From the NCBI GenBank assembly GCA_002839645.1, contig PGYL01000017.1, forward strand, positions 1 to 47,708: 47,708 nt of DNA, read 5' to 3'. Shown here piece by piece: positions 11,999-47,708 of this stretch. The number at the start of each line of letters is the position of its first letter. Positions within the stretch are counted from its first letter, which is position 1. A program made the translations under genes and the position numbers. The notes below the pieces were generated by a model. The model ran no database searches. It saw only the letters and a program-made list of their open reading frames with translations, and was not told the origin of the DNA. The DNA comes from Methanomicrobiales archaeon HGW-Methanomicrobiales-2. Its GTDB lineage: Archaea > Halobacteriota > Methanomicrobia > Methanomicrobiales > Methanoculleaceae.

Positions 11999-13480
11999 TC
12001 ACCTGAGCCATCCCAGCCTGTAGAAGACCCACCCGACCACAAGCATCGAGATGATGGTCCAGACGGTCACCTCCCAGAGGTAGAGGCTGAACGGGGTGCC
12101 GAGGATGTTCATCCCGAGCACCTGCCCGATCAGGGTCGGGATGAGGACCAGGGCCGAGAGGACGGCGATTACCCGCATCGCCCGGTTCATCTCGTAGGAG
12201 ACGCTGTTGATGTGGACGTCGATTAAGGAGAGAAGACCCTCCCGGATGTTCCCGGCGGTCTCGTGCAGGTAGTCCGTCTCGTTTGAGAGTGCATCGAAGA
12301 CGCTCTTCTGCCCGGCCCATGATCCTGCGGCGGGAATATCCTTCGCGATGATCGTCGCCACCTCTTTCTGGTGGAAGAGGCTTGAGGCCAGAACGCTGCT
12401 CACCCTCTTGAACTGGAAGACGGTGTCGAGGAAGTTCTTCGGCATCTCCTTGTTGGGAATACTCTCAAGCCGCATCAGTTCCGCCTCCATCTCCGAGAGG
12501 ATCCGGGCGTAATCCTCGTTGATCCGGTCGAGGGACTCGTAGAGAACCCGGGCGTACAGGGGCGCCCCGGTCAGGGTGCTCTCGTCGAGACCTGCCCGGA
12601 TCTGCCCGAAGAAGCGGTCTTCTGCCTTCGAGACGGTGACGATCGTCTTGCCCCGGTTCACGATGATCAGCCCGATGCTCGTCATGACCGGGATCCGCAC
12701 CCCGTTCTTTACCCGGACTGTCCGCTCCGGCTCCTGCACGAAGACGAGCCGGGTGGCGTCGGCAACCGTTATCCCGGGGTGCGATGGTTTCATCAGCCGG
12801 CTCTCGAAGAAGACATCGGGAATCCCGAGCATATCGGAGAGCACCGGGAAATCCAGCCTTGAAACGCCGGAGAGATCGAACCAGGCCTCAACCGAGGGAT
12901 CTGCAAGGTGTTCTTTCACCTCGGCAGGGGTGTATTCCCTGTAGTCGCCTCCGGCATCTCCCACCACGCCCTGGATCCGCATCGTTGAGAACGCCGGTGT
13001 TGCAGGCCCGACATCGGCAATCTCCGGCTCGATCCGGCGTTCCACGGACCTTCCGCCGGCCGCCGCCACCCGGACCACCCGGAGGAGCCGGAGCGTGGGG
13101 GAGGACCTCGCGAGCGTCGAACTGACACCCGGGACCACCTCGAGGACCGGGAGCGTGATGATGACAAGATCGAGAAGATGCCAGCGGTCCAGGAAATGGC
13201 TCACCGGATTCTCTGCAAGGCCCAGTTTGAGGATGTATTCGAGGACGAAGATGGCGATGATCGTGGTATCGACGATATTGAGAAATTCGACTGCCGATTG
13301 CGGCAGAGAAGGGATCAGGAGGGGTATGATGACGATCGGGGCCATAATCAGGCCGAGGAAGATCATCAGGCTGTCCGGGAGGATCCGGTAGACAAGACCC
13401 CTGAGGGCTGCCTTCCTCTCCGGCCGGGTCTCTCCGGTGACGGTATCCCCTTCTTCCCCTGAAGGCTGAATCCTCTGCAT
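11999..13480 (-). CDS. Voltage-sensor-like domain fused to a CorA-type transporter
   Basis: A 493-aa protein. Residues about 20-150 form four hydrophobic helices resembling the S1-S4 part of ion channels: an S2/S3-like acidic DRWHLLDLVII, then an S4-like helix with spaced arginines (TLRLLRVVRV). Residues about 160-490 match the CorA family: an alpha/beta cytoplasmic domain, a long helix, and two C-terminal helices with the hallmark GMN (VLGMNILG). CorA proteins move Mg2+, Co2+ or other divalent ions. ATG 13480 was chosen over earlier in-frame codons because AGGA lies just upstream and the region before it is low-complexity. There is no pore helix between S4 and CorA, so the first domain probably senses voltage or anchors the protein (inference). 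Confidence 0.8.
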   Translation of the reverse strand: MQRIQPSGEEGDTVTGETRPERKAALRGLVYRILPDSLMIFLGLIMAPIVIIPLLIPSLPQSAVEFLNIVDTTIIAIFVLEYILKLGLAENPVSHFLDRWHLLDLVIITLPVLEVVPGVSSTLARSSPTLRLLRVVRVAAAGGRSVERRIEPEIADVGPATPAFSTMRIQGVVGDAGGDYREYTPAEVKEHLADPSVEAWFDLSGVSRLDFPVLSDMLGIPDVFFESRLMKPSHPGITVADATRLVFVQEPERTVRVKNGVRIPVMTSIGLIIVNRGKTIVTVSKAEDRFFGQIRAGLDESTLTGAPLYARVLYESLDRINEDYARILSEMEAELMRLESIPNKEMPKNFLDTVFQFKRVSSVLASSLFHQKEVATIIAKDIPAAGSWAGQKSVFDALSNETDYLHETAGNIREGLLSLIDVHINSVSYEMNRAMRVIAVLSALVLIPTLIGQVLGMNILGTPFSLYLWEVTVWTIISMLVVGWVFYRLGWLR

Positions 13481-30767: not shown

Positions 30768-32021
30768 ATGAGACTGCCGCACAGGCCCGGACCCGGGAGG
30801 CAGGAAGGAGGAGTCCCGGGCACTCACCCGGACGAGTTCTCTCGACGCCTTATGCAGACGCAGGCCGAAGCGGAAGCGGTCATCGCTACGGCAGAACGTG
30901 ACCTGAAACGGTTGCAGGCGATGAAGTGGAGCCTCAAGTACACATCGCTCATCCTTGCGGCGGTGGTCGTGATCAACCTGGGGCTCCTGTTTGCGTTCAC
31001 CTGGCGTTTCTACCTCTCCTGGATCATGGCCGCCTTCATCTTCCTGATGGTGAACCCCTTCCTGCTTCTGTTCCCGACCGACCTGGGCGATCTGCGGTCC
31101 TACGTCCGGTACTTCAGAGACTTAAAGATCCGTGAGAAGATGAGCCTGGACGAGATCCGGTCCTGGTCCCGGCCCGGTGAAGGCAGCATCGCCGATACGA
31201 TGGAGGCGCTCAAGGGGCTCACGCGGCAGAGGAACTACCTCTACGAACTCGGGTGGAACCTGTTCTTCATAAACTGCCAGCCCCTTGCCCCGGGTTTTCT
31301 CGTGCTGTTCGCCCTCTGTTCGGTCTTTGCGCTTGCCGGCTGGATGATCGACGGTGAGTTTGAGCCGTATTCCTCCATCATCGTCATCGTTCAGTCCGCT
31401 GCAATCATTGTATTCTACATTGCCATCGTCTATGTGCGGCCGTATTCACGCGGGTTCTTTGCGGGGGTGCTCGGCATGCCCTCCACATTCAAGGAGCGGT
31501 ATACGGCAGCCTGGAGCCAGGGGTTGAAATACGCTCTCACCGCCGCCGTGCTGATCATCGTCACCGGGATCTTCTTTATCGCGGCGATTCTCCTCCCCGG
31601 AGTAACGTACAACAGTTTCGTATCTGCCGAAGCTGACATCGAGATCGGAGCCGGCACGTTCGCCCTCATCTTCCTGGTGCAGATGATCGTTGTACGACAT
31701 CTCCAGGGAAACTACAGCGGGGCGCTCGTGCGTTCCCTTCTATCATCCAGAATCGGGACGATCCGGGAGGAGGTGCTGCCGGCCATCTCAGATCTCGCCT
31801 CAGCATCGCTGCATGACGGCGTGACCCCCCGGATGACCGAAGACCTGAAGAGGATAAGCCTTGATATAACCCGGCACCGGGCGCTGAAGATCGATTACGC
31901 CTCGCTGTTCGGTTACTTCCCCGTCTGCATGGTTACTCCCGACGTCGGTGCCGTAATGAGCATTTCGGGGGCGGCGGGCGGTAGTCGTGGAAGGATCAAC
32001 ACAGGTGAGACGGCGGCGTAA
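30768..32021 (+). CDS. Polytopic membrane protein, unknown function
   Basis: A 417-aa protein with a hydrophilic N-terminus containing a short coiled coil (TQAEAEAVIATAERDLKRL) and about seven transmembrane helices in two groups, with a conserved-looking cytoplasmic loop (REKMSLDEIRSWSRPGEG). A cytoplasmic tail with an Arg-rich segment ends the protein. No family is recognised. A TATA-like TGTTTTATG at about 30734-30742 lies near -28 of ATG 30768, supporting that start; ATG 30852 is an alternative. It stands after the large exported-protein pair but has its own promoter. Confidence 0.6.
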   Translation: MRLPHRPGPGRQEGGVPGTHPDEFSRRLMQTQAEAEAVIATAERDLKRLQAMKWSLKYTSLILAAVVVINLGLLFAFTWRFYLSWIMAAFIFLMVNPFLLLFPTDLGDLRSYVRYFRDLKIREKMSLDEIRSWSRPGEGSIADTMEALKGLTRQRNYLYELGWNLFFINCQPLAPGFLVLFALCSVFALAGWMIDGEFEPYSSIIVIVQSAAIIVFYIAIVYVRPYSRGFFAGVLGMPSTFKERYTAAWSQGLKYALTAAVLIIVTGIFFIAAILLPGVTYNSFVSAEADIEIGAGTFALIFLVQMIVVRHLQGNYSGALVRSLLSSRIGTIREEVLPAISDLASASLHDGVTPRMTEDLKRISLDITRHRALKIDYASLFGYFPVCMVTPDVGAVMSISGAAGGSRGRINTGETAA

Positions 32022-33229: not shown

Positions 33230-34510
33230 ATGAAACTCCCTCACACTCCAGAATACTCTCCGGCAGATGTCAAAAAGGCCTGGAAGTATGCGGATACTAA
33301 CGATGTAATCGACGCAGTCTTCAACTATAACAAAAAATACCTGCACTGGGAAGAGCTGAAATGGCGCGATCTTCCGGTAGATCCCCTCTATGTCTGGATA
33401 CTGATGAAGACCTTCAGAGAGAGGGATATGAGATATATACCATTCGATGATCTTCAGCTGAAATATAATCTCCTGGACGATTTTCTCGAAAACCTTCACT
33501 TCCTTGATAAATCAGCAGCGGGAAGTATCTCATCGGGCCTCGATTCACTGCCTCACGACCGGGATCAGTTTATCATCAACTCCCTGATGGAGGAAGCGAT
33601 TGCATCGAGCCAGATCGAGGGAGCCGCAGTCACCAGGACAATTGCAAAAAAGATGCTCCGTGAAAAGAGGAAACCCGCCACTAAAGATGAGAGGATGATC
33701 CTGAATAACTATATCACGATGAAGAGGATCACTCAGATAAAAGATGAAGATCTAACCCCGGAGCTGATTTTACAGATTCACAAGACCATCACCCAGGATA
33801 CGCTCGAAGATCCGAAAGACGAAGAAAGATTCAGAGATAACAACGATATCAGGGTCTTTGATTTAAGAGGCAACATCTTACACACACCTCCCGATTTCGC
33901 GTTAATTGAAGACCTCATCGAAAAGCTCTGTGCTTTTGCAAATAACGACGACGGGCAATTCATCCACCCGGTAATTAAAGGCATTATCCTGCACTTCTTG
34001 ATCGGATACATACATCCGTTCAATGACGGAAACGGTCGGACTGCACGGAGCCTCTTCTACTGGTATATGCTCCGGAAAGACTACTGGCTTTTTGAATATA
34101 TGGCGGTATCGAGAGCGATAAAAGATACGAAGGGACAATATAAACTCGCATATCAGTATACCGAGAGTGATGAAAACGACCTCACGTATTTCATCCGCTA
34201 CAATCTCGCGGCAGTAAAAACCGCGGTCGACAATATCCTGAAATACATCGAGAAAAAGCAGAGAGAGAGCAAACAGGCGCTAAACATTCTTCAGAAGAGC
34301 GAAGGACTGAGTCTCCGTCAGGCAGAGATCATTAAATCTCTTATCAAAAAGCCTGATAAGCCGATCACGATCAAAGAGATCGTTGAGACATACCGCGTGG
34401 CCTACGCGACAGCGAGGAGTGATCTCTTTCATCTCGAAGAATCGGGATACCTGGCGAAACAGAAATCGGGCAAGGAGTACATCTTCCTATTCAGGGGTTT
34501 GAAGGAATAA
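33230..34510 (+). CDS. Fic-family protein with inhibitory motif and C-terminal winged helix
   Basis: A 426-aa Fic protein. The catalytic loop HPFNDGNGRTAR (near residues 261-272) matches HPFx[D/E]GNGRxxR, so AMP-transfer (or related NMP-transfer) activity is expected. An inhibitory helix motif SSQIEG (near residue 125) matches [S/T]xxxE[G/N] and marks a class II, self-inhibited Fic. The last 70 residues form a winged-helix-like DNA-binding domain. The gene runs straight into the dead start of an hsdR gene, suggesting it was once part of a type I restriction-modification operon, where fic genes are common. Full length and apparently intact. Confidence 0.9.
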   Translation: MKLPHTPEYSPADVKKAWKYADTNDVIDAVFNYNKKYLHWEELKWRDLPVDPLYVWILMKTFRERDMRYIPFDDLQLKYNLLDDFLENLHFLDKSAAGSISSGLDSLPHDRDQFIINSLMEEAIASSQIEGAAVTRTIAKKMLREKRKPATKDERMILNNYITMKRITQIKDEDLTPELILQIHKTITQDTLEDPKDEERFRDNNDIRVFDLRGNILHTPPDFALIEDLIEKLCAFANNDDGQFIHPVIKGIILHFLIGYIHPFNDGNGRTARSLFYWYMLRKDYWLFEYMAVSRAIKDTKGQYKLAYQYTESDENDLTYFIRYNLAAVKTAVDNILKYIEKKQRESKQALNILQKSEGLSLRQAEIIKSLIKKPDKPITIKEIVETYRVAYATARSDLFHLEESGYLAKQKSGKEYIFLFRGLKE

Positions 34511-34683: not shown

Positions 34684-35248
34684 ATATCTACTTCTTGTTT
34701 GACCTGGAGGTCTACCGGGCCTGGAGCGGGGGGCCACGGTCTGGCTGGACGACGACCCGGACGACCCCGACGATGGCAGCAGTGCAGCAGATGTGCAGCA
34801 TATGTACAGCAACTGCTGCCAACAAGAGATCGACCGGAGCGAGGAAGATTCCGGAAAAGACGGTCAGGATCCTGATATAGATCGATCTAGGTACGTACAT
34901 GTACAGCAGAATGAGAGAACGGAGAGCATGGAGGATGAAGTTCCGGATGATGACCGGAGTGCCTGTGTTTTCCACACTGCTGTACATGAACCGGGGGATC
35001 CCATGCATCGGGGCGAAAAAACAGATCCAGTCCCGAATATGGCCGCACTCATTGGCAGCACCTGCTGTACATATGCTGCCAACGCTGCCAACATCAACCC
35101 CGCCGACTACATCCCCCTCCCGGTGGAGAGGGACGAGCCCTGCCACGTCTGCGGCCGGCGGCCGACGTCGTCGTTGAAACGGGGCGGCGGGCTCTACCTC
35201 TGCTACGATTGTTTGCGGATGGCAAAGCGGCTGGCGAGGGTGCGGTAG
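34684..35248 (+). pseudogene. 3' remnant of a primase-helicase (rep) gene related to the one at 42413
   Basis: The translated remnant aligns with the C-terminal 250 residues or so of the intact replication protein. YRAWSGG-ATVWLDDD lines up without gaps with YREWVAELAVWLEDE once one missing base is assumed in the G6 run at 34728-34733. Later matches are VQHM..NCCQQEID to LQHL..PCCKGVCK, AANAANINP to NAVANVANN, and a final zinc-ribbon-like CHVCGR...CYDCLRMAKRLARVR to CEICDT...CEGCYARLVREG. The helicase and primase parts are lost. A 151-codon open frame (34793-35248) survives but is not expected to function. It is followed at once by cas1 sequence. Confidence 0.7.
34781..35090. repeat. Cluster of TGTACAGCA motifs
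   Basis: The 9-mer TGTACAGCA occurs at 34803-34811 and 34900-34908, and inverted (TGCTGTACA) at 34978-34986 and 35063-35071. Half-matches (GTGCAGCA at about 34782 and 34792, TGCTGCC at about 34814, 35074 and 35083, GGCAGCA at about 35054) fill the space between. This lies within the decayed rep remnant, at the place where the intact rep gene has its TTGCAA cluster. Confidence 0.6.
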
Positions 35249-35865
35249 ACGCCGTGAACTGCATGCTGAACTACGGCTACTCGCTGCTGGAAGTGGAATG
35301 TTTGCGGGCCATCAACAGCACCGGCCTGGACGCGCACGTCGGGTTCCTCCACGAGATGCAGCCGGGGAAGTACAGTCTCGCCTACGACCTGCAGGAGCCC
35401 TTCAGGTTCCTGGTAGACCTCGCCGTAATCACGCTCATCGAGAGTGAGGCAATGGCGAAAGGTGACTTCATCAGGACCGAGAACTACAACCTCCGCCTCC
35501 GGCCGACCGGCGCACGCAAAGTCACCGAGGAAGTCAACAGGTGGTTTAACAAGGCAGTGGAGTATCAGGGGAAGGAATCCGCATGGAGTTATATCATCTT
35601 CCTTAAGACCAGAGAACTGGCACACTACCTCACCAGGAAGAAACGGAAACTCGACTTCTCAAGTCCCCCCTACGAGATCGACCGGCAGGACTCCGACGAG
35701 ATGCGCCGGAAGATACTTGCGATTCCGTATGCTGAGTGGAAGAAGATGGGGTTCTCCAAGGGGACGCTGCATTATCTGAAGGAAAACGCGCGGGACGGGA
35801 AGCCGTTCACGATGAACAAGCATGTGCGGGAGAGATTGAAGGAGTGGCCTATCTCTCACGATTGA
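35209..35865 (+). pseudogene. cas1: N-terminally truncated cas1
   Basis: From about 35245 the frame carries the catalytic helical domain of Cas1, the CRISPR integrase: VDAVNCMLNYGYSLL, GFLHEMQPGKYSLAYDLQEP with the metal-binding His (H48) and Asp (D60), RLRPTGARKV, and the C-terminal DRQDSDEMRRKI...FSKGTLHYLKENA block. The N-terminal beta domain and the catalytic Glu region are absent. The first dozen codons of the open frame are rep-remnant DNA read in another frame, so the junction lies at the rep stop (35246-35248). No cas2, effector gene or CRISPR array is in the window. It cannot be a working Cas1. Confidence 0.8.
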
Positions 35866-37727: not shown

Positions 37728-38585
37728 TTAAGTAAAACCGACCCTCATAAATTGAAATTCAGGTTTGTCAATAACATCATTTAGTGACGAACATCCCGGG
37801 CACAAACCTTCACTGATCTGTTCAAGAAGTTCCTTTTGATGGCGGAGGTTAAATTCACCAGTAAATACCTTATTCATTTCGATAATCAACCTTTCCTCTA
37901 AATAGGCTAGAATAATGCCATAGCTCCCAATCTTAAGATTATAAATGTGATCTAATTCTTCCTTATTAATTGCGACGCCTAAAAGTGCTTTTGTCTCTTT
38001 ATTATCCTTCCAATTGAGGATGTTTTCACCTTTTCTTATGGATTCATATGTTTGAAACAATACCCTACTAATAAATCTTCTATAAACATTGTAAACCCTC
38101 CAGGCCTCATCGTTAATAAACGGTCTAAGTCTAGATTCTTTATCGCTCAATTCACTCAATTTGTATAGGAACTCTTCACGTTTAGGTAACTCTCCTACCC
38201 ACTCCTTTATAATTTCTTGAGTTTTAGGTTCCCTGATTTCCGAATCTAGAAAAATATCGTAGAATGAAAGAGGAGACTGAGACCTCTTCATTTCCATGGC
38301 AAATTCCCAGAGATCTGAAATTGCAGAAATCCTCTTTTTTTGTATCTCATCGCTTGATGATTTATAGATTTGGAGCAGATTTGAAAAGTTCTCCTCGTCT
38401 CTTCTCAAATGTGAACGTAATTCGCTTAACTCCCTTTCCTGCTTTTCTTTCCAAGATCTGTTTAATTTTTCAAGAATACCCTGTCCAAAAAACTTAACGC
38501 CAACACAAATTATACCCAAAGTGATTCCAGAGGATGTAATACTGGTAATTGCTAGGGAGACCTCGTCCATGATTGACTTATGCAA
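37728..38585 (-). CDS. Membrane-anchored protein with a coiled-coil region, unknown function
   Basis: A 285-aa protein. One N-terminal transmembrane helix (residues about 12-35, ITSSGITLGIICVGVKFFG) is followed by a charged, probably coiled-coil stretch (about 40-95) and a mainly helical cytoplasmic domain. Near the C-terminus a single CPGC pair occurs (about residues 262-265). No family is recognised. It is AT-rich and runs in the same direction as the TIR pair 330 bases upstream. ATG 38585 or 38570 (MDEVSL) could be the start. Confidence 0.55.
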   Translation of the reverse strand: MHKSIMDEVSLAITSITSSGITLGIICVGVKFFGQGILEKLNRSWKEKQERELSELRSHLRRDEENFSNLLQIYKSSSDEIQKKRISAISDLWEFAMEMKRSQSPLSFYDIFLDSEIREPKTQEIIKEWVGELPKREEFLYKLSELSDKESRLRPFINDEAWRVYNVYRRFISRVLFQTYESIRKGENILNWKDNKETKALLGVAINKEELDHIYNLKIGSYGIILAYLEERLIIEMNKVFTGEFNLRHQKELLEQISEGLCPGCSSLNDVIDKPEFQFMRVGFT

Positions 38586-38913: not shown

Positions 38914-39087
38914 TTATGGCGAATTAAGCGATCTAATGAATAATTCTGGTAACAGATCAGCTCTATGCATAGACAAGAGAATCTCAAGTGGATAGGCCCT
39001 TTTCTTTTTCTGTAATTCGAGAACAATTGTGTTTCTCTCTTCCTTTATACTGTAACTAGGAAGATACTCTTTCAATTTGTCCATCAT
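38914..39087 (-). CDS. 57-aa partner encoded directly behind the TIR gene
   Basis: A 57-aa protein, MMDKLKEYLPSYSIKEERN onward, ending SLNSP. It is charged, with predicted helices and a short beta-like TIVLELQ segment. Its ATG (39085-39087) follows the TAG of the TIR gene with no gap (TAGATGATG), so the two are translationally coupled. No family is recognised. Its position suggests a regulator, activator or immunity partner of the TIR protein (inference). Confidence 0.6.
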   Translation of the reverse strand: MMDKLKEYLPSYSIKEERNTIVLELQKKKRAYPLEILLSMHRADLLPELFIRSLNSP

Positions 39088-39786
39088 CTATTCAATCTCT
39101 TGATTGGGACCAATTTTTCTAGCAATTAATAATGCAAACTCTTCCGGAGTTTTCCTGTTTAGATCGATATAGCCTGTTGTAGTTCTGATTCCTGGAATTT
39201 CAGTTTGATCAAACCTTGCGGGCAGGATATAGTCCCTTCTTTCTTGGAAAGCTCTCGCTTGCGCACTTTCCCTTTCGTGATTCGTCCATAATTTGTCTTT
39301 ATAATATTGAGATATGAAAATTACAACGTAGTTTGCTTTTTTTTGGTAAACGTCATCTAAGTGAGTATATAGGTTTCTCCCCCAAAGATCTACTTCTGCG
39401 TATTTATCATAGAATACTTTTACTTCTAACTTGATGAGGTATTTAGCAACTTCCTCAACGTAAGATCTGTCTTCACCTGCGAAGGACAGAGCAACATCAT
39501 AGTCGGGCACAACGTATACGGAAGGTTGCTCAGGTAGTGCTTGATAACTCAACTCGACTTTCCTAAGTGTAGCATAGGAAACTCCCAATGCTCCAGCAGC
39601 CTGCTTCTTGCTGCCGCAATCTGCTACAAAATGACCTAATTGTTCTAATGCTTTATCCTTCCCAACCACATTCCCCCACGTTTCCCAGAAAAGAGTCCTG
39701 TATCCAGTGCTCACTTGCCCTCCACCGGTATACTTTTTATGAGATTCGTTAACCATATCTAAAAAAGACCACTTTGGATCAATCAA
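39088..39786 (-). CDS. TIR-domain protein with an N-terminal helix-turn-helix-like region
   Basis: A 232-aa protein. Residues about 48-82 look like a helix-turn-helix (SKKQAAGALGVSYATLRKVE). Residues about 95-225 form a TIR domain: YDVALSFAGEDRSYVEEVA, VFYDKYAEVDLWGRNL, VVIFISQYYKDKLWTNHE and GYIDL. E171 in WTNHE is the likely catalytic glutamate of NAD-cleaving TIR domains. Such proteins deplete NAD+ in antiphage defence. The reading frame starts at TTG 39786; ATG 39756 is the alternative. A TATA-like CTTTATTTAA at about 39810-39819 places the transcript start close to the TTG. The frame stays open upstream without a good start codon. Confidence 0.85.
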   Translation of the reverse strand: MIDPKWSFLDMVNESHKKYTGGGQVSTGYRTLFWETWGNVVGKDKALEQLGHFVADCGSKKQAAGALGVSYATLRKVELSYQALPEQPSVYVVPDYDVALSFAGEDRSYVEEVAKYLIKLEVKVFYDKYAEVDLWGRNLYTHLDDVYQKKANYVVIFISQYYKDKLWTNHERESAQARAFQERRDYILPARFDQTEIPGIRTTTGYIDLNRKTPEEFALLIARKIGPNQEIE

Positions 39787-40211
39787 GTCTTTCAGCCCCT
39801 GATACCGATTAAATAAAGTATAACTGATGCTTGTAAATAAACGGTCGAGAAGATAATCCTTTTGAATTATTTGGATTGATTACTGCCAAAAGATCACTTA
39901 ACAACCTGATTTTGCTGTCCTCTTGTCTCTCACCTTTGGCTTAACAAAATTCTTTGTCCTGTAATCATCATGAACAGTAATCCGCCTGCCCCAGATGATC
40001 TTCATCAATAACCCCCTCAAAACAAAATCCCCACCGGAGGCCTATATCGATCATCCAGGTGCATGATCGTCGGTACTGCACCGTACACGCTGATGATGAA
40101 AAGTCAGTACACCACTTGATCCCCACCCGCGCATCACGATGCCTACTTGGTGATCACGGTCAGGTGATGGATGTCAAATTTTTTCGTGTTACCTATAACC
40201 CAACCTAAAAA
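39787..40211. other. Intergenic stretch left of the att site
   Basis: No gene supported. It contains the promoter of the TIR gene (about 39806-39826), a 7-bp inverted repeat (CGATCAT 40048-40054, ATGATCG 40063-40069), and the T5 run (minus strand) just beyond the tRNA fragment's 3' end, probably the host tRNA gene's original terminator. Confidence 0.45.
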
Positions 40212-40267
40212 TGCGAGGAGAGGGATTCGAACCCGCGAACTCCTTCGAGAGTCGATCTTGAGTCGAC
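40212..40267 (-). other. attachment site: 3' fragment of a tRNA-Leu(CAA) gene
   Basis: On the minus strand the sequence runs from the anticodon stem-loop (GTCGA CTCAAGA TCGAC, anticodon CAA), through a long variable arm and a T-arm containing GGTTCGAATCCC, to the acceptor strand ending CTCGCA. The D-arm and 5' acceptor strand are absent, so it is not a functional gene. A T run follows its 3' end. One T-stem pair is mismatched. The integrase gene starts 9 bases to the right. This is the duplicated target end left when an element enters a tRNA gene. Confidence 0.8.
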
Positions 40268-40275
40268 ACTTACAC

Positions 40276-41478
40276 ATGGCGCAAGACACCTTCAAAAGCA
40301 AGACGCCTGAAGTCTATAAACGAATGGCCCTGGACCCGTACGAAAACAACAACCTCAAGGAACTCGATCAGCTGAACGACCTTGATCCGATAAATCACAG
40401 ACATCTCCAAGGGTACATCCACGACCTGGAACTCAAGCAGCTGAAAGACACAACAGTCCGGCACAAGCTCTGGGGGATATACCCCCTGCTTAAGGCCACT
40501 GCTTTCAAAGATGCCGTGACCATCACACGGATGGACCTCGAAGACTTTGTCATCAGGAGGCGAAGGACGTGCAGTCCCTTCACCCTATACGGCGAGATCC
40601 TTGAAACCAAGTTGTTCTTCCGCTGGCTCGTGCCGGAGAGAGAGAAGGAGTTGTTTAAGAACATCAAGAACGTACGCCCACGCAAGAAACTGCCGGTCGA
40701 GCAGCTCATTGTTCGCGACGACATCAAAACCCTTGTTGGGGCCTGCGACAACCAGCGGGATCGGGCACTCATTATGCTCCTGTGGGACTCCGGGTGCAGG
40801 ATCAGCGAAATACTCTCCCTCAATGTGGGCCGCGTGCAGTTCGACCGATACGGCGCTGTGGTAATCGTCGATGGGAAGACCGGCCGCCGCCGCCTGCGCC
40901 TCATAGACAGCGTTCCCGATCTTCAGCTCTGGTTGAACATGCACCCGCTTCGAACGGACCCGGCAGCCCCTCTCTTCCTGACCAATACCCGATTCGGGGT
41001 CGGTCGCAAGAGGTTGAATTCACGCACCGTCCAGAACCGCCTCAAGTATCTCCAGGAGACATTGAATCTGGGGAAACCCACCAATCCGCATGCCCTCCGA
41101 CACGGCAGGCTAACCGACCTCGCAAAGAAGGGATTCTCCGAGATGGAACTTCGTCTGATTGCCGGGTGGGAGAAGGGCAGTAACATGCCTGAAGTGTATG
41201 TACACCTCAGCGGTGGAGACATTGAAAGGAAGATGCTCGAAAAAGCCGGGTTTGTGGAGGCCACGGTGAATAAAGAACCCAGCCTTCAGCCGCGAGAGTG
41301 CCCCCGGTGCAAGGCCCTGAACACCTATGATGCACTGTTCTGCGCGAAGTGCTCTATGATACTCGTCGAAGAAGTGGCGAGGATGGTGGAGAGCAAGACG
41401 GAGAAGGCACAGCAGAGCTTTGATTACGACGCGGCGATTCAGAAGATGAGAGCAGACCTGGGCCTCCCGGCTCAATAA
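40276..41478 (+). CDS. int: Tyrosine recombinase/integrase with C-terminal zinc ribbon
   Basis: A 400-aa integrase. An N-terminal SAM-like core-binding domain covers about residues 20-130. The catalytic domain has Arg in GCRISEI (near residue 175), HALRHGRLT (HxxR, near 270) and the nucleophile Tyr in PEVYVHLSG (near 307). A zinc ribbon (CPRCKALNTY...CAKC) follows at about 335-360, as in many archaeal integrases. ATG 40276 is chosen because the longer frame upstream (from 40171) is read through the antisense of the tRNA fragment. It presumably recombines the tRNA-Leu att site beside it to insert or excise the element. An oligo-T run follows its stop. Confidence 0.92.
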   Translation: MAQDTFKSKTPEVYKRMALDPYENNNLKELDQLNDLDPINHRHLQGYIHDLELKQLKDTTVRHKLWGIYPLLKATAFKDAVTITRMDLEDFVIRRRRTCSPFTLYGEILETKLFFRWLVPEREKELFKNIKNVRPRKKLPVEQLIVRDDIKTLVGACDNQRDRALIMLLWDSGCRISEILSLNVGRVQFDRYGAVVIVDGKTGRRRLRLIDSVPDLQLWLNMHPLRTDPAAPLFLTNTRFGVGRKRLNSRTVQNRLKYLQETLNLGKPTNPHALRHGRLTDLAKKGFSEMELRLIAGWEKGSNMPEVYVHLSGGDIERKMLEKAGFVEATVNKEPSLQPRECPRCKALNTYDALFCAKCSMILVEEVARMVESKTEKAQQSFDYDAAIQKMRADLGLPAQ

Positions 41479-41489
41479 GACTCCACTCC

Positions 41490-41496
41490 TTTTTTT
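41490..41496 (+). terminator. Oligo-T terminator after the integrase gene
   Basis: T7 run 11 bases after the integrase stop. Confidence 0.55.
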
Positions 41497-41707
41497 AGTA
41501 AAACTCCCTGGGGCTGAATCGCAATGCTGCTTTCTATCGCGCTTGCTCCGTCGTCGTAGCAACTCTGCCGGTCTCCTGTGCAGTTGGCCCATGCACATAC
41601 ACCGAGCGCGGTTCTCGCTTAAATCACCCCTTGCCCACCTATTCTGTGTGTGCGAGAGGCCGACGGCCTAACGCCGATCCCATGGCATCTTCGCACAGGA
41701 GAACTGC

Positions 41708-41851
41708 ATGGAAGAGATCACCCAGGAAGTACTCGACCACATCCCGGACCCCATTGCAAAACTCGTCTGGGAGAAGTGGATCGCCGATGGTAAAGCCAGA
41801 TTGATAACGCCACACAACGAGGGAACGAAATGCAACGCACAGACAGGATAG
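41708..41851 (+). CDS. 47-aa element protein
   Basis: A 47-aa frame, MEEITQEVLDHIPDPIAKLV then a Trp-rich WEKWIADGKARL segment, with the look of a small DNA-binding or regulatory protein. AGGAGA lies 8-12 bases before the ATG. It overlaps the next gene by 22 bases and so heads the element's gene chain. A weak TATA-like TTAAAT lies at about 41619. No family is recognised. Confidence 0.5.
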   Translation: MEEITQEVLDHIPDPIAKLVWEKWIADGKARLITPHNEGTKCNAQTG

Positions 41852-42078
41852 ACGGCAGCCCACGGGATGAAGCGTGCACCAACATCGATTCACACGGGAC
41901 TGCCAACAACTCTTCTCCGTCCGGAGTTATAAGTCCAACTCCCGAGAAGCGAATGGCAGGTGTCGTCCCGCTCTACCTGGTCCAGCAGGTCGTGGCCGCC
42001 GAGATCGGCCGATACGGCCGGGCGGTGCGAGAGATCCACCGTCACAACCCTGACGGGACAGGAGGTGGCCGGCCATGA
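41830..42078 (+). CDS. 82-aa element protein
   Basis: An 82-aa frame with a hydrophilic N-terminal half and a C-terminal half (VVPLYLVQQVVAAEIGRYGR) that looks helical and DNA-binding-like. It overlaps the gene before it by 22 bases and the gene after it by ATGA (42075-42078). ATG 41953 (MAGVVPLYL) is a shorter alternative start. No family is recognised. Confidence 0.5.
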   Translation: MQRTDRIDGSPRDEACTNIDSHGTANNSSPSGVISPTPEKRMAGVVPLYLVQQVVAAEIGRYGRAVREIHRHNPDGTGGGRP

Positions 42079-42416
42079 CTGAACCCGGGACCCTCTCCCA
42101 CAGCACCGGCGGAGCGCTCCACATCGCCGTCGACGCCGAGCACTACCGGATCGAGGCTGAAGACCTCAAGAGCCTGCTCTTCTATGGCCGGGTAATTCCG
42201 ATCACCGAGGATCGTTCACGGACGACCCCCGGCGGGATCCTGGTCAGCGAGGTTGCCATCGAGGGGCACGCGGCGATGAACGCTTCGGGCAAAGCGGTGA
42301 TGCTCCATACCCGTGTCGGCTCCTACATCGTCCCGCTCATCAGTTTTCAGCGGGTCGCCCGCGGAGAGGCCATCTCTGCCCCGCTCTTTCCCCTCATCCC
42401 AGGGGTGACGGGATGA
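42075..42416 (+). CDS. 113-aa element protein, unknown function
   Basis: A 113-aa beta-rich protein (ALHIAVDAEHYRIE, LLFYGRVIPI, KAVMLHTRVGSYIVPL). It is joined to its neighbours by ATGA overlaps on both sides (42075-42078, 42413-42416), so it is made together with the replication protein and may assist it. No family is recognised. Confidence 0.6.
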   Translation: MTEPGTLSHSTGGALHIAVDAEHYRIEAEDLKSLLFYGRVIPITEDRSRTTPGGILVSEVAIEGHAAMNASGKAVMLHTRVGSYIVPLISFQRVARGEAISAPLFPLIPGVTG

Positions 42417-45280
42417 AAGACGCCATCGAGAACGTGGTCAACGTGCTCGCCCCCGACGGCGGCGTGGTCGAGGTCCGGGCGCTCGCCGACGGCGTCACCC
42501 ACTCCGGCTACTTCGACGACTACGAGGCACTCGCCCGGGCCGTCGAAGCGCTCGATGCCGACCCCTCGGTCGCCGGGATCTATGTCACCTTGAACAGCGT
42601 GAACCCGGCGCTCCTCGCCCGCCGGGCGAACCGGATCAAGCTGCGCCTCTCCCGCAAGGATGCCACGACCGCCGACGCCGACATCATTCGCCGGCGCTGG
42701 TTCCCGGTCGACATCGACCCGGTCCGGCCGAGCGGGGTCTCGTCGACCGACGCCGAGCACGACGCAGCGCTCGCTGCTGCGGAGCGGATCGCGGCCTACC
42801 TCGCCGAGCAGGGGTTCGGGGCGCCCATCCGGGCCGACTCGGGCAACGGTGCCCACCTCCTCTACCGGGTGGACCTCCCAAATGATGAGCCCTCGACCGC
42901 GCTTGTGAAGGGCTGCCTCACCACCCTCGATGCCCTCTTCTCCAACGAAGCCGTGACTGTCGATACCGCGAACCACAACGCCGCCCGGATCTGGAAACTC
43001 TACGGCACGCTCTCCCGGAAGGGTGACAATACTCCGGAGCGGCCCCACCGGCGGGCGAGGCTGCTCGCGGCTCCAGCGGAGATAAGTGTTGTTCCCCTGG
43101 AACTGTTGCAACATCTCGCGGGGCTCCTCCCCCGGGAAGAGCCTCCGCGGCAAAAGAAGGCAGGCGGCAACGGCCCCGGTATCGACCTTGCCGCCTGGCT
43201 CCTCGACCACGGCATCGCCGTCCGGTCGACGCGGCCCTACCAGGGCGGCACGCTCTTCACCCTCGAGGACTGCCCGTTCTCGTCGGCCCACAAGGACGGG
43301 GCCTTCACGATCCAGTTTGCAAACGGCGCCGTCTTCGCCGGCTGCCACCACGCAAGTTGCGGTGGAGGGGCGCAGCGCTGGCCGGAACTCCGGGAGATGT
43401 ACGAGCCGAAGAGACAGAGGGCAGAGAAGAAGCGGGAGGAGGCACCCGCCCCTCCCCCGGCCCCGGTGGAGGACGAGCACCGCCGCAGGGCGACGGAGAT
43501 CCTCCGGGACGGCGACCCGCTCGCCTTCCTCCTCGACACCTTCCACAAAGAGCACGTCGGTGACCGGACCGTCGCGGAGTGCCTGGCGATGTCCATCGCC
43601 TCGCAGTCCGTCGCGAACACGAAGGGGCTGCACGTCGCCATCTCCGGCAACTCCGGCAAGGGGAAGAGCCATGCCTGCGTAACGATGCTCAACCTCGTCC
43701 CGGCGGACTACAAACTCACCGGCACTGTGAGCAACAAAGCGCTCTACTACGCCGACGACCTCCGGCCGGGGACGGTGATCCTCTTTGACGACACATCGCT
43801 CTCAGACGACCTGCAGGAGGTCCTGAAGTCGGCCACCTCGTCCTTCCACGAGCCCATCGAGCACCGGACCGTCACGGCCGACCGGCAACTCCGGGTCTGT
43901 GCGATCCCTGAGCGGTGCGTCTGGTGGCTCGCGAAGGTCGAGAACCCCGGTGACGACCAGGTGATGAACCGGATGCTGACGGTCTGGATCGATGACTCGG
44001 CCGAGCAGGACCGGGCGGTGCTCGAGCACCTCAAGGAGACGGAGGCGAGCAGACCTACCAGGGGCGACGACCCGGATGTCCTCACCGCCCGGGCGCTCTG
44101 GTCGATCGTGAAGCAGCAGCGGATCTTCGTCCATATCCCCTTCGCCCGGCGGATAGGGTTCTCGAACGTCGCGAACCGCAGGAACCCCGCGATGCTCTTT
44201 GACCTGATCAAGTGCCACGCAGCGCTCCGGTTCCTGCAGCGGGAGGGGAAGGAGACGGAGGGTGAGGTCCGGATCGCGGCGACCCGGCAGGACTTCGATG
44301 CAGCCGTCCGCCTCTACGCTGCGATCAACCAGGAGGGCGGCGGGCAGGACTCAAAGATGACCCGGAACGAAGCGGCGGCGCTCGCCACCATCGCCCGGAT
44401 GGGCTGGGAGTCGTTTACGGTCCGGATGCTGCAGGAGGCGACGGGGTTGTCGTATCACCAGGTCCGGCGGATCCTGCAGGGCTACACCGCGAGGGGCATG
44501 ACCTACTGCGGGCTCCTGGAGAAGTGTCCTGCCATCAGTGTGGTGGACGCGACGGTCATCGACGAGAGCACCGGGACGACCGTCCGCCGGCACGAGTCCC
44601 ACTTCCAGTTCGACGCCGGGCGCTACCGGGAATGGGTGGCAGAGCTCGCGGTCTGGCTGGAGGATGAGGAAAAGGGGGAGGATGACTCCCCACCGCCTTC
44701 TGGTGACCATTTGCAACATCTCCAACCCTGTTGCAAAGGGGTGTGCAAACATGAGTGCAAAGAGATCGAGGGTGGGAGTTCTCAATGGGGTGAGGGGGAT
44801 TTGATGAACAAAGAGATTCCCGCAGAGATCAATCACGGCGTTCAGGGGTCGTTTGCAACAAATTCCAGATCACACAGTTCACCTGATCCTGCTCCACTGG
44901 AAGAGCACCATGACCTTGTGCAGGGCCGGAGTGTGCCGTGTGTTTCTGGACTTGTTGCAAACGAAACGATCGAAGGTGGCGATTTGACGATGAATCAAGG
45001 AAAATCCAGCGCAACGAGGAGTTCGAGCGTGAAAAGTGTTTGCACTCCTATTTGCACACCCCTTTGCAACGCGGTTGCAAATGTTGCAAACAATGTCCGG
45101 CCGCTCTCCGGGGTGCTTGACCCCAGGACGTTTGCCCGGGTGAAGGTCGACCTCGGCCGGTGCGAGATCTGCGATACCGCAAAAGCGGTCTACCGTTCAC
45201 GCGAGGCACAGACGCATATCTGTGAGGGGTGCTATGCCCGGCTGGTGCGGGAGGGGAACGCGAGGGAGGGGGTGCGGTGA
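42413..45280 (+). CDS. Plasmid/provirus replication protein: AEP primase fused to helicase
   Basis: A 955-aa replication protein. Residues about 60-235 form an archaeo-eukaryotic primase/polymerase: FPVDID (D100, D102), SGNGAHLLY (H148) and VDTANHNAARIWKLYG (D184). A Cys/His patch (about 285-325; CPFSSAHKDG...GCHHASCGG) resembles primase zinc motifs. A P-loop helicase follows, with Walker A GNSGKGKS (about 413-420) and Walker B VILFDD (about 453-458), then a winged-helix-like region (about 650-690). The last 200 residues are low-complexity with a terminal zinc ribbon (CEICDT...CEGC), and their DNA carries many TTGCAA words. ATGA overlap upstream, GTGA overlap downstream. Confidence 0.85.
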   Translation: MKDAIENVVNVLAPDGGVVEVRALADGVTHSGYFDDYEALARAVEALDADPSVAGIYVTLNSVNPALLARRANRIKLRLSRKDATTADADIIRRRWFPVDIDPVRPSGVSSTDAEHDAALAAAERIAAYLAEQGFGAPIRADSGNGAHLLYRVDLPNDEPSTALVKGCLTTLDALFSNEAVTVDTANHNAARIWKLYGTLSRKGDNTPERPHRRARLLAAPAEISVVPLELLQHLAGLLPREEPPRQKKAGGNGPGIDLAAWLLDHGIAVRSTRPYQGGTLFTLEDCPFSSAHKDGAFTIQFANGAVFAGCHHASCGGGAQRWPELREMYEPKRQRAEKKREEAPAPPPAPVEDEHRRRATEILRDGDPLAFLLDTFHKEHVGDRTVAECLAMSIASQSVANTKGLHVAISGNSGKGKSHACVTMLNLVPADYKLTGTVSNKALYYADDLRPGTVILFDDTSLSDDLQEVLKSATSSFHEPIEHRTVTADRQLRVCAIPERCVWWLAKVENPGDDQVMNRMLTVWIDDSAEQDRAVLEHLKETEASRPTRGDDPDVLTARALWSIVKQQRIFVHIPFARRIGFSNVANRRNPAMLFDLIKCHAALRFLQREGKETEGEVRIAATRQDFDAAVRLYAAINQEGGGQDSKMTRNEAAALATIARMGWESFTVRMLQEATGLSYHQVRRILQGYTARGMTYCGLLEKCPAISVVDATVIDESTGTTVRRHESHFQFDAGRYREWVAELAVWLEDEEKGEDDSPPPSGDHLQHLQPCCKGVCKHECKEIEGGSSQWGEGDLMNKEIPAEINHGVQGSFATNSRSHSSPDPAPLEEHHDLVQGRSVPCVSGLVANETIEGGDLTMNQGKSSATRSSSVKSVCTPICTPLCNAVANVANNVRPLSGVLDPRTFARVKVDLGRCEICDTAKAVYRSREAQTHICEGCYARLVREGNAREGVR
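44711..45090. repeat. Cluster of TTGCAA palindromes inside the rep gene
   Basis: The palindrome TTGCAA occurs at about 44711, 44731, 44853, 44955, 45065, 45075 and 45085. TGCA variants occur at about 44744, 44756, 45041 and 45052. The consensus is close to GTTGCAAAC. Two more lie earlier in the gene (about 43107 and 43318). The words fall in the disordered part of the protein, in a GC-rich gene where such an AT-containing hexamer should be rare. They are candidate binding sites for replication initiator or regulator (inference). Confidence 0.7.
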
Positions 45281-45534
45281 TCCCTGTCGATCCTCTCCAG
45301 GGACCGGCGGTGGTGCTTGGTATGGCCGGAGCGGCGCTGGTGGTTTCGCGGTCACAGGGCATCCGGCGGGCAGGGTTCGCGGCTTGGGTTGTGGGAAACC
45401 TGCTGTGGGTAGTGTACGCATCGGTGCAGGAGAACGCCTACATGATGACCCTCTTCGGGTTTTACTGGGTCACGGCAGCATTGGGCTTGATGAACACACG
45501 AGAGAAGGGAAATACGGATCAGTTCGCATCGTAG
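45277..45534 (+). CDS. Small membrane protein of the element
   Basis: An 85-aa protein with three hydrophobic segments; GNLLWVVYAS followed by FGFYWVTAALGLMN recalls small PQ-loop/semi-SWEET-like or PnuC-like membrane proteins, but the similarity is weak. The GTG start (45277-45279) overlaps the rep stop (GTGA) and has a strong GGGAGGGGG just upstream, which decides the start. Fifth gene of the coupled chain. Confidence 0.55.
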   Translation: MIPVDPLQGPAVVLGMAGAALVVSRSQGIRRAGFAAWVVGNLLWVVYASVQENAYMMTLFGFYWVTAALGLMNTREKGNTDQFAS

Positions 45535-45562
45535 AACTTCGTCGGAGCAGAGCGTCATCTCA

Positions 45563-46129
45563 TCAGTACGGGACAAAGGGCACAGCGGTAAACTCACTCA
45601 CCTGCCCCGAGAGGTCTATCACCTCTGGTATACGGAATGAAAGAGTCAGTGTTCCATGATTGGGAGTCCAGAACTCGGCATGGACGGTGGTGTTCGCAGG
45701 TATGGGTTGCTGGAGGGGTAAGGTGAGTTCCATTACCTCACCTGGTTCGAGCGTGTTGATATTGTCTCCGTTTTCTCGAGAGGAGATGGAATACTCTCCC
45801 GGCTCAAGAATACAGAGGTCGCTGCCGTCTGTATACGTGACATGCATCTTCGTGATGTCAATCTCCCGGTCCTGCTCTGGATTGCCGGAGACTATCGCTT
45901 CGGGGGTTACTGTCAGATTGAGGACGAGCATCGTAACCGCTATGCCTGACTCGTCCACTGCAGTTCCCTGATAGCGGATCGGTGGTTCAATCCCAAGTGG
46001 AGAACGAGGGTAGGCATCTGCATGGGCCTGATCGTCACCGGATGACAGAAGCAAAGTGCAGCCAGTGGTCAGGAGGGCCCCGACGATAGAGAGTGCTACC
46101 AGGCATCCACCAACGGTGCGTATCACCAT
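45563..46129 (-). CDS. Lipoprotein with archaellin-like beta domain
   Basis: A 188-aa exported protein. The N-terminal hydrophobic stretch ends in a lipobox (LTTGC), so the mature protein is lipid-anchored outside the cell. The remaining 150 residues form a beta domain whose features recall the outer domain of archaellins: an AVTMLVLNLTV strand, ITKMHVTYTDGSD, a LEPGEVMELTLPL turn and a final strand before IPEVIDL. The family call is by pattern only. It runs divergently from the archaellin gene 178 bases away. Confidence 0.6.
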   Translation of the reverse strand: MVIRTVGGCLVALSIVGALLTTGCTLLLSSGDDQAHADAYPRSPLGIEPPIRYQGTAVDESGIAVTMLVLNLTVTPEAIVSGNPEQDREIDITKMHVTYTDGSDLCILEPGEYSISSRENGDNINTLEPGEVMELTLPLQQPIPANTTVHAEFWTPNHGTLTLSFRIPEVIDLSGQVSEFTAVPFVPY

Positions 46130-46307
46130 GTAGGAGTGTTGTGAAGTCCAATACCAAAAATCTGACGCCGTAAGTCTGTTACAAGTGAGGCAGATTCGGT
46201 CGTGTCATCTTGCTGGATCAAGTGCCATATGTTCAAATAATCGTTTATCAATCCAGTAAATACAGGGACTGAGCAGCAGTGCTGACTTATTGCGGACGGA
46301 GGTGGGA

Positions 46308-46865
46308 ATGAAACCATTTGCACCCGATGACAGAGCGTTTACCGGCCTAGAGGCAGCGATGGTCTTCATTGCCTTTATAGTTGTAGCCTCCGTCTTTGCG
46401 TATGTGGCACTCGGCGCCGGTTTTTTCACGACCCAGAAGACAGAGCACACTGTTTACTCGGCGGTGCAGCAGGTTGGCTCTATTGTCCAGATCGTTGAAC
46501 CAATTATGGTGCAGGCAAGTGCCTCTGGTGACAGCATACGCTATATTGTCATTATGTTGAGGGTTCCTCAGGGCACTGATATTGACGTAGAGCAGATTGT
46601 CATAACAGTATCAACCGCCGAGGCCATGCAGACATACAGGGGAGCAAATCTATGGCATCCCATAGGCAATGACGGGCAAGCGCCGATCTTTTGGACCGTG
46701 CAGATCCCGCTGTATCAGGCCGATGACCCTACAATCCCGGCAGACCTGGTCATCAGTCAAAACCAGAGGTTTTTCGTCGAAATGAAGTCTTCTGAAGCAG
46801 TTCCATGCACAGCAGAGCGCAGAGCACCGGCAGGTATGAAACCTGACAGTTGGTACGATGTATAG
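46308..46865 (+). CDS. Archaellin (flagellin-type) on the integrated element
   Basis: A 185-aa protein with the archaellin N-terminus: a short basic/acidic leader (MKPFAPDDRA), then FTGLEAAMVFIAFIVVASVF and GAGFFTTQKTEH, the class III signal peptide processed by prepilin peptidase followed by the core helix that packs the filament. The outer beta domain ends ERRAPAGMKPDSWYDV. ATG 46308 is preferred to 46290 because GGAGGTG (46298-46304) lies just before it. Only one archaellin and no motor or export genes are present, so the product would have to join the host filament. Confidence 0.85.
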   Translation: MKPFAPDDRAFTGLEAAMVFIAFIVVASVFAYVALGAGFFTTQKTEHTVYSAVQQVGSIVQIVEPIMVQASASGDSIRYIVIMLRVPQGTDIDVEQIVITVSTAEAMQTYRGANLWHPIGNDGQAPIFWTVQIPLYQADDPTIPADLVISQNQRFFVEMKSSEAVPCTAERRAPAGMKPDSWYDV

Positions 46866-46911
46866 ATCAGGTAGCCTGCCTCAAACGCACTCGCCAAGCC
46901 TCTGGAAGGAC

Positions 46912-47175
46912 TTATCGAGATTCTTCGTGCACTTTTCGGGCCGCCTCTAACGCGATCGGCTCCCACTCACGATCCAAGGTGGTGTCATCCCAAGCAAAGC
47001 CCTTGGTGCGAAGCAGGTTCCGAATCTCGACACCTATCCCAAAATGCTGCATAATCAGCCAGTCGGGCTCTCTCGATATCCCTTCGTAAATTTGCAGTAG
47101 TATCTCTCCGGGAATGGCCTCTATGAGATGTTGAATCGCCTTCTCACGCTCTTCTTCACTGATGCAGAGGTACAT
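46912..47175 (-). CDS. DUF6794-like small protein
   Basis: An 87-aa soluble protein. The segment PDWLIMQHFGIGVEIRNLLR resembles the DUF6794 signature (a conserved HFGxGxxIRN), seen in proteins of unknown function. The start has GGAG upstream, and the gene overlaps the membrane-protein gene before it by 20 bases, so they form a pair. Family assignment is moderately sure; function is unknown. Confidence 0.6.
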   Translation of the reverse strand: MYLCISEEEREKAIQHLIEAIPGEILLQIYEGISREPDWLIMQHFGIGVEIRNLLRTKGFAWDDTTLDREWEPIALEAARKVHEESR

Positions 47176-47410
47176 TGTGTCTCCTTGAAGAGATGTACTT
47201 CATCCCAACCCAGACCTGCATCACGAATGTTCCTACCGCCGCGATAATGAGTAGGCAGTACCCCAACGGGAAAATGAACCAGTAACCCAAATCTGGGAAC
47301 AGATATGTCCACTGTGGGCTTACGATGCGTATGAGCATGGCTGCGATGAAAAACCGAAACATCCATTCTGTGGGATAGAGGAGGTCTCTAATGGTTGCCC
47401 CTGGATTCAT
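47156..47410 (-). CDS. Small two-helix membrane protein
   Basis: An 84-aa protein with two transmembrane stretches (about residues 15-35 and 40-70) and a basic end (YISSRRHNVPLHQ). It is the first gene of a pair with the DUF6794-like gene, which it overlaps by 20 bases. Its TATA box about 25 bases upstream points to a leaderless transcript. No family is recognised. Confidence 0.5.
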   Translation of the reverse strand: MNPGATIRDLLYPTEWMFRFFIAAMLIRIVSPQWTYLFPDLGYWFIFPLGYCLLIIAAVGTFVMQVWVGMKYISSRRHNVPLHQ

Positions 47411-47424
47411 AATGAGTCCTATGC

Positions 47425-47440
47425 CACTTAAATTTAAAAG
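47425..47440 (-). promoter_or_regulatory. TATA box for the minus-strand pair
   Basis: On the minus strand the sequence is CTTTTAAATTTAAGTG, centred about 23-25 bases from the ATG at 47410, the usual spacing for an archaeal promoter with a leaderless start. Confidence 0.5.
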
Positions 47441-47613
47441 TTTGTGGCTCCTTGGAAGTAGATTTCTCCGGGGGGTCTTGTCCTCATCATTCCTACAGGC
47501 AGAGTCGGTAGTAGTCGATCTTGGCCATTAGGCGTACCGAGCATGAGAAGATCGCGAGTCTTCGAGGGTGCCGTGCCTCTGGCTGGCGCGGGGGGATCGA
47601 GGGGTGTGGGAGG

Positions 47614-47708
47614 TCATCCCAATACTCTCGCAATCATGATGCTGCATGCCAGGTGAATCAGTCCCATGAATGAGTGCTCATACCGCTCGTATCGTGGAAC
47701 GATCTTCT
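47614..47708 (-). mobile_element. IS5-type transposase, C-terminal part (cut by window edge)
   Basis: On the minus strand the frame reads KIVPRYERYEHSFMGLIHL then ACSMIARVLG and a stop. This is the IS5-family transposase C-terminus, with the upstream part beyond the window, so it may belong to an intact IS. It is homologous to the remnant at 33015-33110 in inverted orientation. The 200 bases left of it (47411-47613) hold a promoter and no other gene. Confidence 0.75.

What the first reader, a model, noticed from the sequence alone, without database searches (positions are those of the whole stretch)
38914..39786. TIR-HTH protein translationally coupled to a 57-aa protein
The TIR domain keeps the likely NADase glutamate (WTNHE). 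The small gene starts on the base after the TIR stop, a zero-gap arrangement typical of toxin-partner or sensor-effector pairs. The HTH-like part may sense or bind DNA. The small partner is short enough to be missed by usual gene calling, so the pair may be an undescribed defence unit.
Basis: partly seen in the sequence, partly recalled or inferred. Interest (0 to 1): 0.65.

Follow-up and report, generated by a model that had tools for sequence, protein, structure and literature searches.

The report
TIR gene split by in-frame stop
In a methanogen chromosome, what looked like a defence enzyme with a tiny partner protein is more likely one TIR-domain protein whose own tail was cut off by an in-frame stop codon, so it is not a new two-gene defence system, though the tail domain itself is rare and undescribed.

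Summary
The sequence features are real. A 232-codon HTH-TIR frame (39786..39088, minus strand) ends in TAG. The next codon opens a 57-codon frame (39087..38914). A human-gut scaffold (MT838632.1), inside a DpnII restriction-modification/AIPR island, encodes a single-chain TIR protein (200 aa). Its C-terminal ~60 residues are homologous to the 57-aa frame (score 66; best of 200,000 shuffles 61) and align across the junction with no gap. The window's TAG falls opposite a leucine codon and its 'start' ATG opposite a conserved internal Met. So the 57-aa frame is best read as the TIR protein's own C-terminal domain, cut off by an in-frame amber stop, not as an independent partner. The genome has no PylS above the family cut-off, so TAG should be a true stop. 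The only other full-length HTH-TIR homologue found (45%) has no such tail and no small gene behind it. The TIR keeps the WxxxE NADase motif and lies in an AT-rich variable segment beside tRNA-Leu(CAA). Most likely it is an NAD-consuming defence effector truncated at the natural end of its TIR domain. Whether the tail is translated or dead is open.

The parts
39088..39786 (-). HTH-TIR ORF, 232 codons, TTG start, TAG stop
   Evidence: start position agrees with G111 homologue
39523..39786 (-). N-terminal helical domain (residues 1-88)
   Evidence: Shared only with G111 in 393 phylum genomes; helices in the model, pLDDT about 70
39559..39615 (-). Fis-type helix-turn-helix-like segment (residues 58-76)
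   Evidence: HTH_8, below curated cut-off, in both homologues
39130..39495 (-). TIR domain (residues 98-219)
   Evidence: Pfam TIR_2 2.4e-16; closest solved fold AbTIR 7uxu
39274..39288 (-). WTNHE = WxxxE motif with the putative catalytic Glu (E171)
   Evidence: Aligned to AbTIR WTNYE; E171 invariant in alignments A1 and A5
39088..39090 (-). In-frame amber stop (TAG) that separates TIR from its C-terminal domain
   Evidence: no PylS above cut-off in the genome
38914..39087 (-). 57-codon frame: homologue of the C-terminal domain of a single-chain TIR protein (L028)
40212..40266 (-). 3' fragment of tRNA-Leu(CAA): attachment-site remnant
   Evidence: 89% identical to the tRNA-Leu of relatives
40171..41478 (+). 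Tyrosine recombinase (integrase) of an element on the right of the tRNA fragment; the true start probably lies inside this ORF
   Evidence: Pfam Phage_integrase 2.1e-19

Best explanation
The two frames are one gene. The ancestor encoded N-terminal HTH domain - TIR - short C-terminal domain (CTD). An in-frame amber codon now ends the main product right after the TIR domain. Shown here: same frame, homology of the 57-aa frame to the tail of a single-chain TIR protein, no PylS, TIR with the WxxxE motif, a variable tRNA-Leu-linked location. Inferred: the product is an NAD+-consuming defence effector. The N-terminal domain senses an infection cue or holds the TIRs inactive; on triggering the TIRs assemble and cleave NAD+ (or make a cyclic ADPR signal), stopping the infected cell. 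The truncated product has the architecture of the tail-less G111 homologue, so it may still work. The CTD is now either silent or made as a separate peptide by stop-start reinitiation.
For: Same frame, zero gap. The CTD of L028 aligns without a gap through the junction; Smith-Waterman 66, none of 200,000 shuffles reaches it (max 61, Z 9.2); top of 5,250 frames, next 52. TAG stands opposite Leu (TTA), the 'start' ATG opposite a conserved Met. The L028 gene lies in a DpnII/Mrr/AIPR defence cluster. PylS: best 28 bits against a cut-off of 178, while the search rings over the cut-off in one control genome. G111 homologue, 45% over residues 2-225, ends after TIR. TIR fold and WxxxE as in the AbTIR NADase (PMC11374754). 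Relatives carry different AT-rich cargo near tRNA-Leu.
Against: Only one fused CTD relative was found (28% identity in the tail, and an unverified scaffold). The CTD has no solved or curated relative, and the model of it is poor (pLDDT about 50). G111 shows that HTH-TIR without a CTD exists, so the CTD could instead have been gained as a separate gene that happens to be in frame. No expression, NAD+ cleavage or defence data. No second sequence from the same species, so an error in the assembly at the TAG cannot be excluded.
Confidence: 0.72

Rival explanations
1. Functional split: the amber stop is fixed, and TAG-ATG termination-reinitiation makes HTH-TIR plus a separate 57-aa CTD that still binds the TIR protein, for example as an inhibitor or assembly factor. 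(It is one of the two fates left open by the best explanation.)
For: ATG ATG directly after the stop; the frame stays open for 57 codons (p about 0.012 at random). A distance of 0 nt lies in the -8 to +10 range taken as predictive of reinitiation in Haloferax and E. coli, and such pairs are enriched in subunits of complexes (PMC10666635).
Against: The ATG is explained by an ancestral internal Met. The commonest coupled distances are -4 and -1, not 0. No other split copy was found in the genomes searched with the TIR or the TIR-CTD query or in the TIR loci of viral contigs. A recent stop would leave the frame open anyway.
Confidence: 0.25
2. Pseudogene in the making: a recent nonsense mutation has removed the CTD and the gene is decaying with its island. 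(The other fate left open by the best explanation.)
For: The island holds a 5'-truncated Cas1 remnant 3 kb away and lies in a high-turnover spot.
Against: The TIR and HTH parts are intact, with the family's invariant residues kept, and a tail-less homologue exists.
Confidence: 0.35
3. Sequencing or assembly error: the living organism has an uninterrupted gene.
For: One base decides; a single genome of 69 contigs is available; no read data here.
Against: Long neighbouring genes (680, 955, 1185 codons) are uninterrupted in the same contig.
Confidence: 0.12
4. Amber read-through, as pyrrolysine or by leaky termination, yields a full-length HTH-TIR-CTD protein.
For: The frame stays open and homologous across the TAG, and some methanogens use TAG for pyrrolysine (own knowledge).
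Against: No PylS above cut-off in a 99.5% complete genome; the best match, 28 bits, is weak like those in most control genomes.
Confidence: 0.04
5. One reading: an independent small gene evolved as toxin partner or sensor of a TIR effector.
For: Position directly after the TIR gene.
Against: Same frame; homology to the tail of a single-chain TIR; absent behind the G111 HTH-TIR gene.
Confidence: 0.05

Closest known systems
Single-chain TIR-CTD protein of MT838632.1 (locus L028, 2104-2706), beside a DpnII R-M system and an AIPR gene
   Same: TIR domain 50% identical; C-terminal domain homologous to the 57-aa frame
   Different: One uninterrupted chain, no N-terminal HTH domain; defence cluster on a scaffold from human faeces
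HTH-TIR protein of genome G111 (L004, 1480-2163), same order
   Same: Same N-terminal domain and TIR, 45% over residues 2-225, same length to the end of TIR
   Different: No CTD and no small gene behind it; W of WxxxE is Y (YPCLE)
AbTIR of Acinetobacter baumannii (PDB 7uxu, 8g83)
   Same: Closest solved TIR fold and sequence; WTNxE motif aligned
   Different: N-terminal coiled coil in place of HTH (own knowledge); no CTD match
Archaeal TIR NADases TcpA (Theionarchaea) and TcpO (Methanobrevibacter olleyae), PMC10937652
   Same: Archaeal TIR proteins with reported NADase activity
   Different: Longer (327 and 341 aa); sequence relation not tested here
Thoeris ThsB
   Same: Weak TIR-level match (PADLOC 2.7e-7)
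   Different: No ThsA found in the island; match limited to the TIR domain
PADLOC candidate PDC-S66
   Same: Best PADLOC match (4e-15), TIR part only
   Different: Only positions 147-239 of 282 match; the rest does not

Membership tests
TIR domain superfamily (Pfam TIR_2) | Score above the curated cut-off over most of the domain | tested here: met
   60.8 bits against a cut-off of 28, profile 1-120/122
Bacterial/archaeal TIR NADases (AbTIR-like) | WxxxE motif with catalytic Glu | tested here: met
   WTNHE aligned to AbTIR WTNYE
Bacterial/archaeal TIR NADases (AbTIR-like) | NAD+ cleavage | not testable with these tools
   Needs an assay
Thoeris | Adjacent ThsA (SIR2-SLOG or macro) effector | tested here: not met
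   No ThsA-type match among the ORFs of the island tested against PADLOC
Toxin-antitoxin or sensor-effector gene pair | Second gene independent of the first | tested here: not met
   Second frame is in the same frame and homologous to the tail of a fused protein
Toxin-antitoxin or sensor-effector gene pair | Pair conserved in related loci | tested here: not met
   Absent behind G111 HTH-TIR and in 393 phylum genomes
HTH proteins | HTH family above cut-off | tested here: inconclusive
   HTH_8 13.9-15.7 bits against a cut-off of 22, same place in two homologues
Pyrrolysine-containing proteins | PylS in the genome | tested here: not met
   28.3 bits against 178

The most novel reading that the evidence does not exclude
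The stop is fixed and useful: a TIR effector has been split into an HTH-TIR enzyme and a trans-acting 57-aa C-terminal domain made by TAG-ATG reinitiation, so that a formerly intramolecular control element became a separate regulator of NADase assembly.
Probability: 0.15. Interest if true: 0.6.

Novelty: new member of a known kind. Interest (0 to 1): 0.27.

Why it matters
It replaces a claimed new two-gene defence unit by a simpler reading, a split TIR protein, and points to a rare, undescribed C-terminal domain of TIR defence proteins seen fused in an R-M island of a gut scaffold and detached in an archaeon. It also shows that a zero-gap gene pair should first be tested for a single frame with an internal stop. 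If the split is functional, it would give a compact case for asking how a TIR NADase is controlled by a tail domain.

Tried and rejected
P0001 alone found no relative: plasmids (best E 7), viral contigs, 100 nearest genomes (best E 0.03, unrelated frames), Pfam, PADLOC, PHROGs and NCBIfam. The L028 tail in phages and plasmids: only chance-level Staphylococcus hits (E about 1) in a bacteriocin-associated membrane protein, rejected. Viral scans with P0002, the L028 protein, A2 and A3: no relatives; with A1: 16 TIR loci, none with the CTD. A wrong Rfam accession (hammerhead) was used once by mistake; it carries no information. Archaeal phylum, Lentzea phylum and alphaproteobacterial phylum samples: no TIR with the CTD beyond the window. 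Bacillota and Bacteroidota, the likely hosts of the gut scaffold (inference), could not be reached by the genome search. The AlphaFold model with TAG read as Leu is reliable for TIR only. I considered a SIR2-like gene in the same spot of relative L085; no Pfam or PADLOC support, not claimed. Viral cargo was considered: the left 32 kb looks chromosomal and the TIR gene lies on the chromosomal side of the tRNA fragment.

Full report
OBSERVATION. The window is the whole of contig C51 of a 2.78 Mb, 99.5% complete genome. On the minus strand an ORF of 232 codons runs 39786..39088 (TTG start, TAG stop). Its next codon is ATG, followed by another ATG, and a frame of 57 codons runs to 38914. All stated features are there. 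What was missed is that a zero gap means one and the same frame: the two ORFs are a 290-codon frame with a single internal TAG.

DOMAINS. TIR_2 covers residues 98-219 (2.4e-16). The closest solved relatives by sequence and fold are AbTIR structures. WTNHE is the WxxxE motif whose glutamate (E208 in AbTIR) is needed for NADase activity (PMC11374754). The N-terminal 88 residues are helical in the model, with a sub-threshold Fis-type HTH at the same place in two homologues. This domain was found convincingly only here and in G111 among 393 genomes of the phylum.

THE 57-AA FRAME. Searches with it alone find nothing. It surfaced when the TIR relatives were read to their ends. The TIR protein of MT838632.1 (L028, 2104-2706, 200 aa) continues past TIR into ...VELMKSELQKSLPTYEITVRGRNVRFYSAVEEFDAEYPLSFLMELYKLDMLYDLFILPALVPN. 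The window reads ...QEIE*MMDKLKEYLPSYSIKEERNTIVLELQKKKRAYPLEILLSMHRADLLPELFIRSLNSP. The alignment runs through the junction without a gap. For the tail alone the score is 66; 200,000 shuffles give mean 24, sd 4.6, maximum 61. An earlier run of 5,000 shuffles against the whole protein gave one at 67. Among 5,250 frames of other fetched loci the next best score is 52 (loci fetched with the 57-aa query itself were left out as biased; with them in, the next best is 60). The stop stands opposite a Leu codon, and the ATG opposite a conserved Met. The L028 gene starts 17 bases after a DpnII endonuclease gene, in a cluster with an N6/N4 methylase, an Mrr-type nuclease and AIPR: a defence context for the fused form.

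IS THE STOP REAL? PylS in the genome: best match 28 bits against a cut-off of 178; the control set passes the cut-off in one genome, as expected for Methanosarcina acetivorans. TAG should therefore terminate. Only one genome of this species is at hand, so an assembly error cannot be excluded. None of the other genomes of the genus holds a match to the TIR gene.

WHAT THE TRUNCATION LEAVES. The full-length homologue in G111 (45% over residues 2-225) ends just after TIR, with no tail and no small gene behind. The amber codon therefore leaves a product of a naturally occurring shape. No other TIR-CTD was seen in the genomes searched with the TIR or TIR-CTD query (232, 393, 396 and 398 genomes, partly overlapping) or in 16 viral TIR loci, so the CTD is rare or confined to groups that could not be reached.

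PLACE. The GC content falls to about 37% at 36-40 kb. In relatives G047, G048 and G050, the gene orthologous to window 30768-32021 is followed some kilobases later by tRNA-Leu(CAA), with a Fic gene (partial in G050) in between in two of them and different AT-rich cargo each time. In the window the 3' part of that tRNA remains at 40212-40266, followed by an integrase. So an element has entered the tRNA on the right, and the TIR gene lies on its chromosomal side, in a variable spot with a SoFic-like Fic gene, a 5'-truncated Cas1 and an HNH gene.

MECHANISM. Most likely an NAD+-consuming, self-sacrificing defence effector: TIR assembly on an unknown cue, NAD+ cleavage or cyclic ADPR production. 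Only the domain content and the location bear on this; activity is inferred. For the tail, termination-reinitiation at TAG-ATG is allowed by distance (PMC10666635), but the ATG is ancestral and so no sign of selection for coupling. Silent tail and separate peptide are both open.

VERDICT. Observation right, TIR part plausible, partner claim not supported. This is a split or truncated TIR protein with a rare C-terminal domain: a new member of a known kind, of modest interest.

Noticed in passing
window 35209-35865: The ORF is the C-terminal half of a Cas1 (TIGR00287 2e-30, profile 188-324 of 327 only) with the 5' half missing; no CRISPR array seen within 31.5-42.5 kb. A short similar piece lies in relative L084 near 12978-13064.
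   Followed up: partly
window 40171-47708: An element with a tyrosine recombinase, a 955-aa possible replication protein and an archaeal flagellin/pilin-like gene appears inserted in tRNA-Leu(CAA); its right end and the restored tRNA would lie beyond the contig.
   Followed up: partly
window 33230-34510: Fic protein resembling SoFic (PADLOC 1e-48), 88% identical copy in G048 in the same spot.
   Followed up: partly
window 37728-38585 and L004 2437-3372: Unannotated proteins with an N-terminal membrane-like segment and a coiled-coil-like part (by eye) lie near both HTH-TIR genes; relation not tested.
   Followed up: no
window 34795-35079: 28-nt inverted repeat, 93% complementary, arms 229 nt apart, directly before the Cas1 remnant.
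   Followed up: no
L085 12549-13586: 345-aa protein with the stretch LVILGAGASRAAFPNG in the tRNA-Leu spot of G048, SIR2-like by eye but without Pfam or PADLOC match.
   Followed up: partly
L044-L055: Family of ATPase-TIR fusion proteins recurrent in IMG/VR contigs.
   Followed up: no
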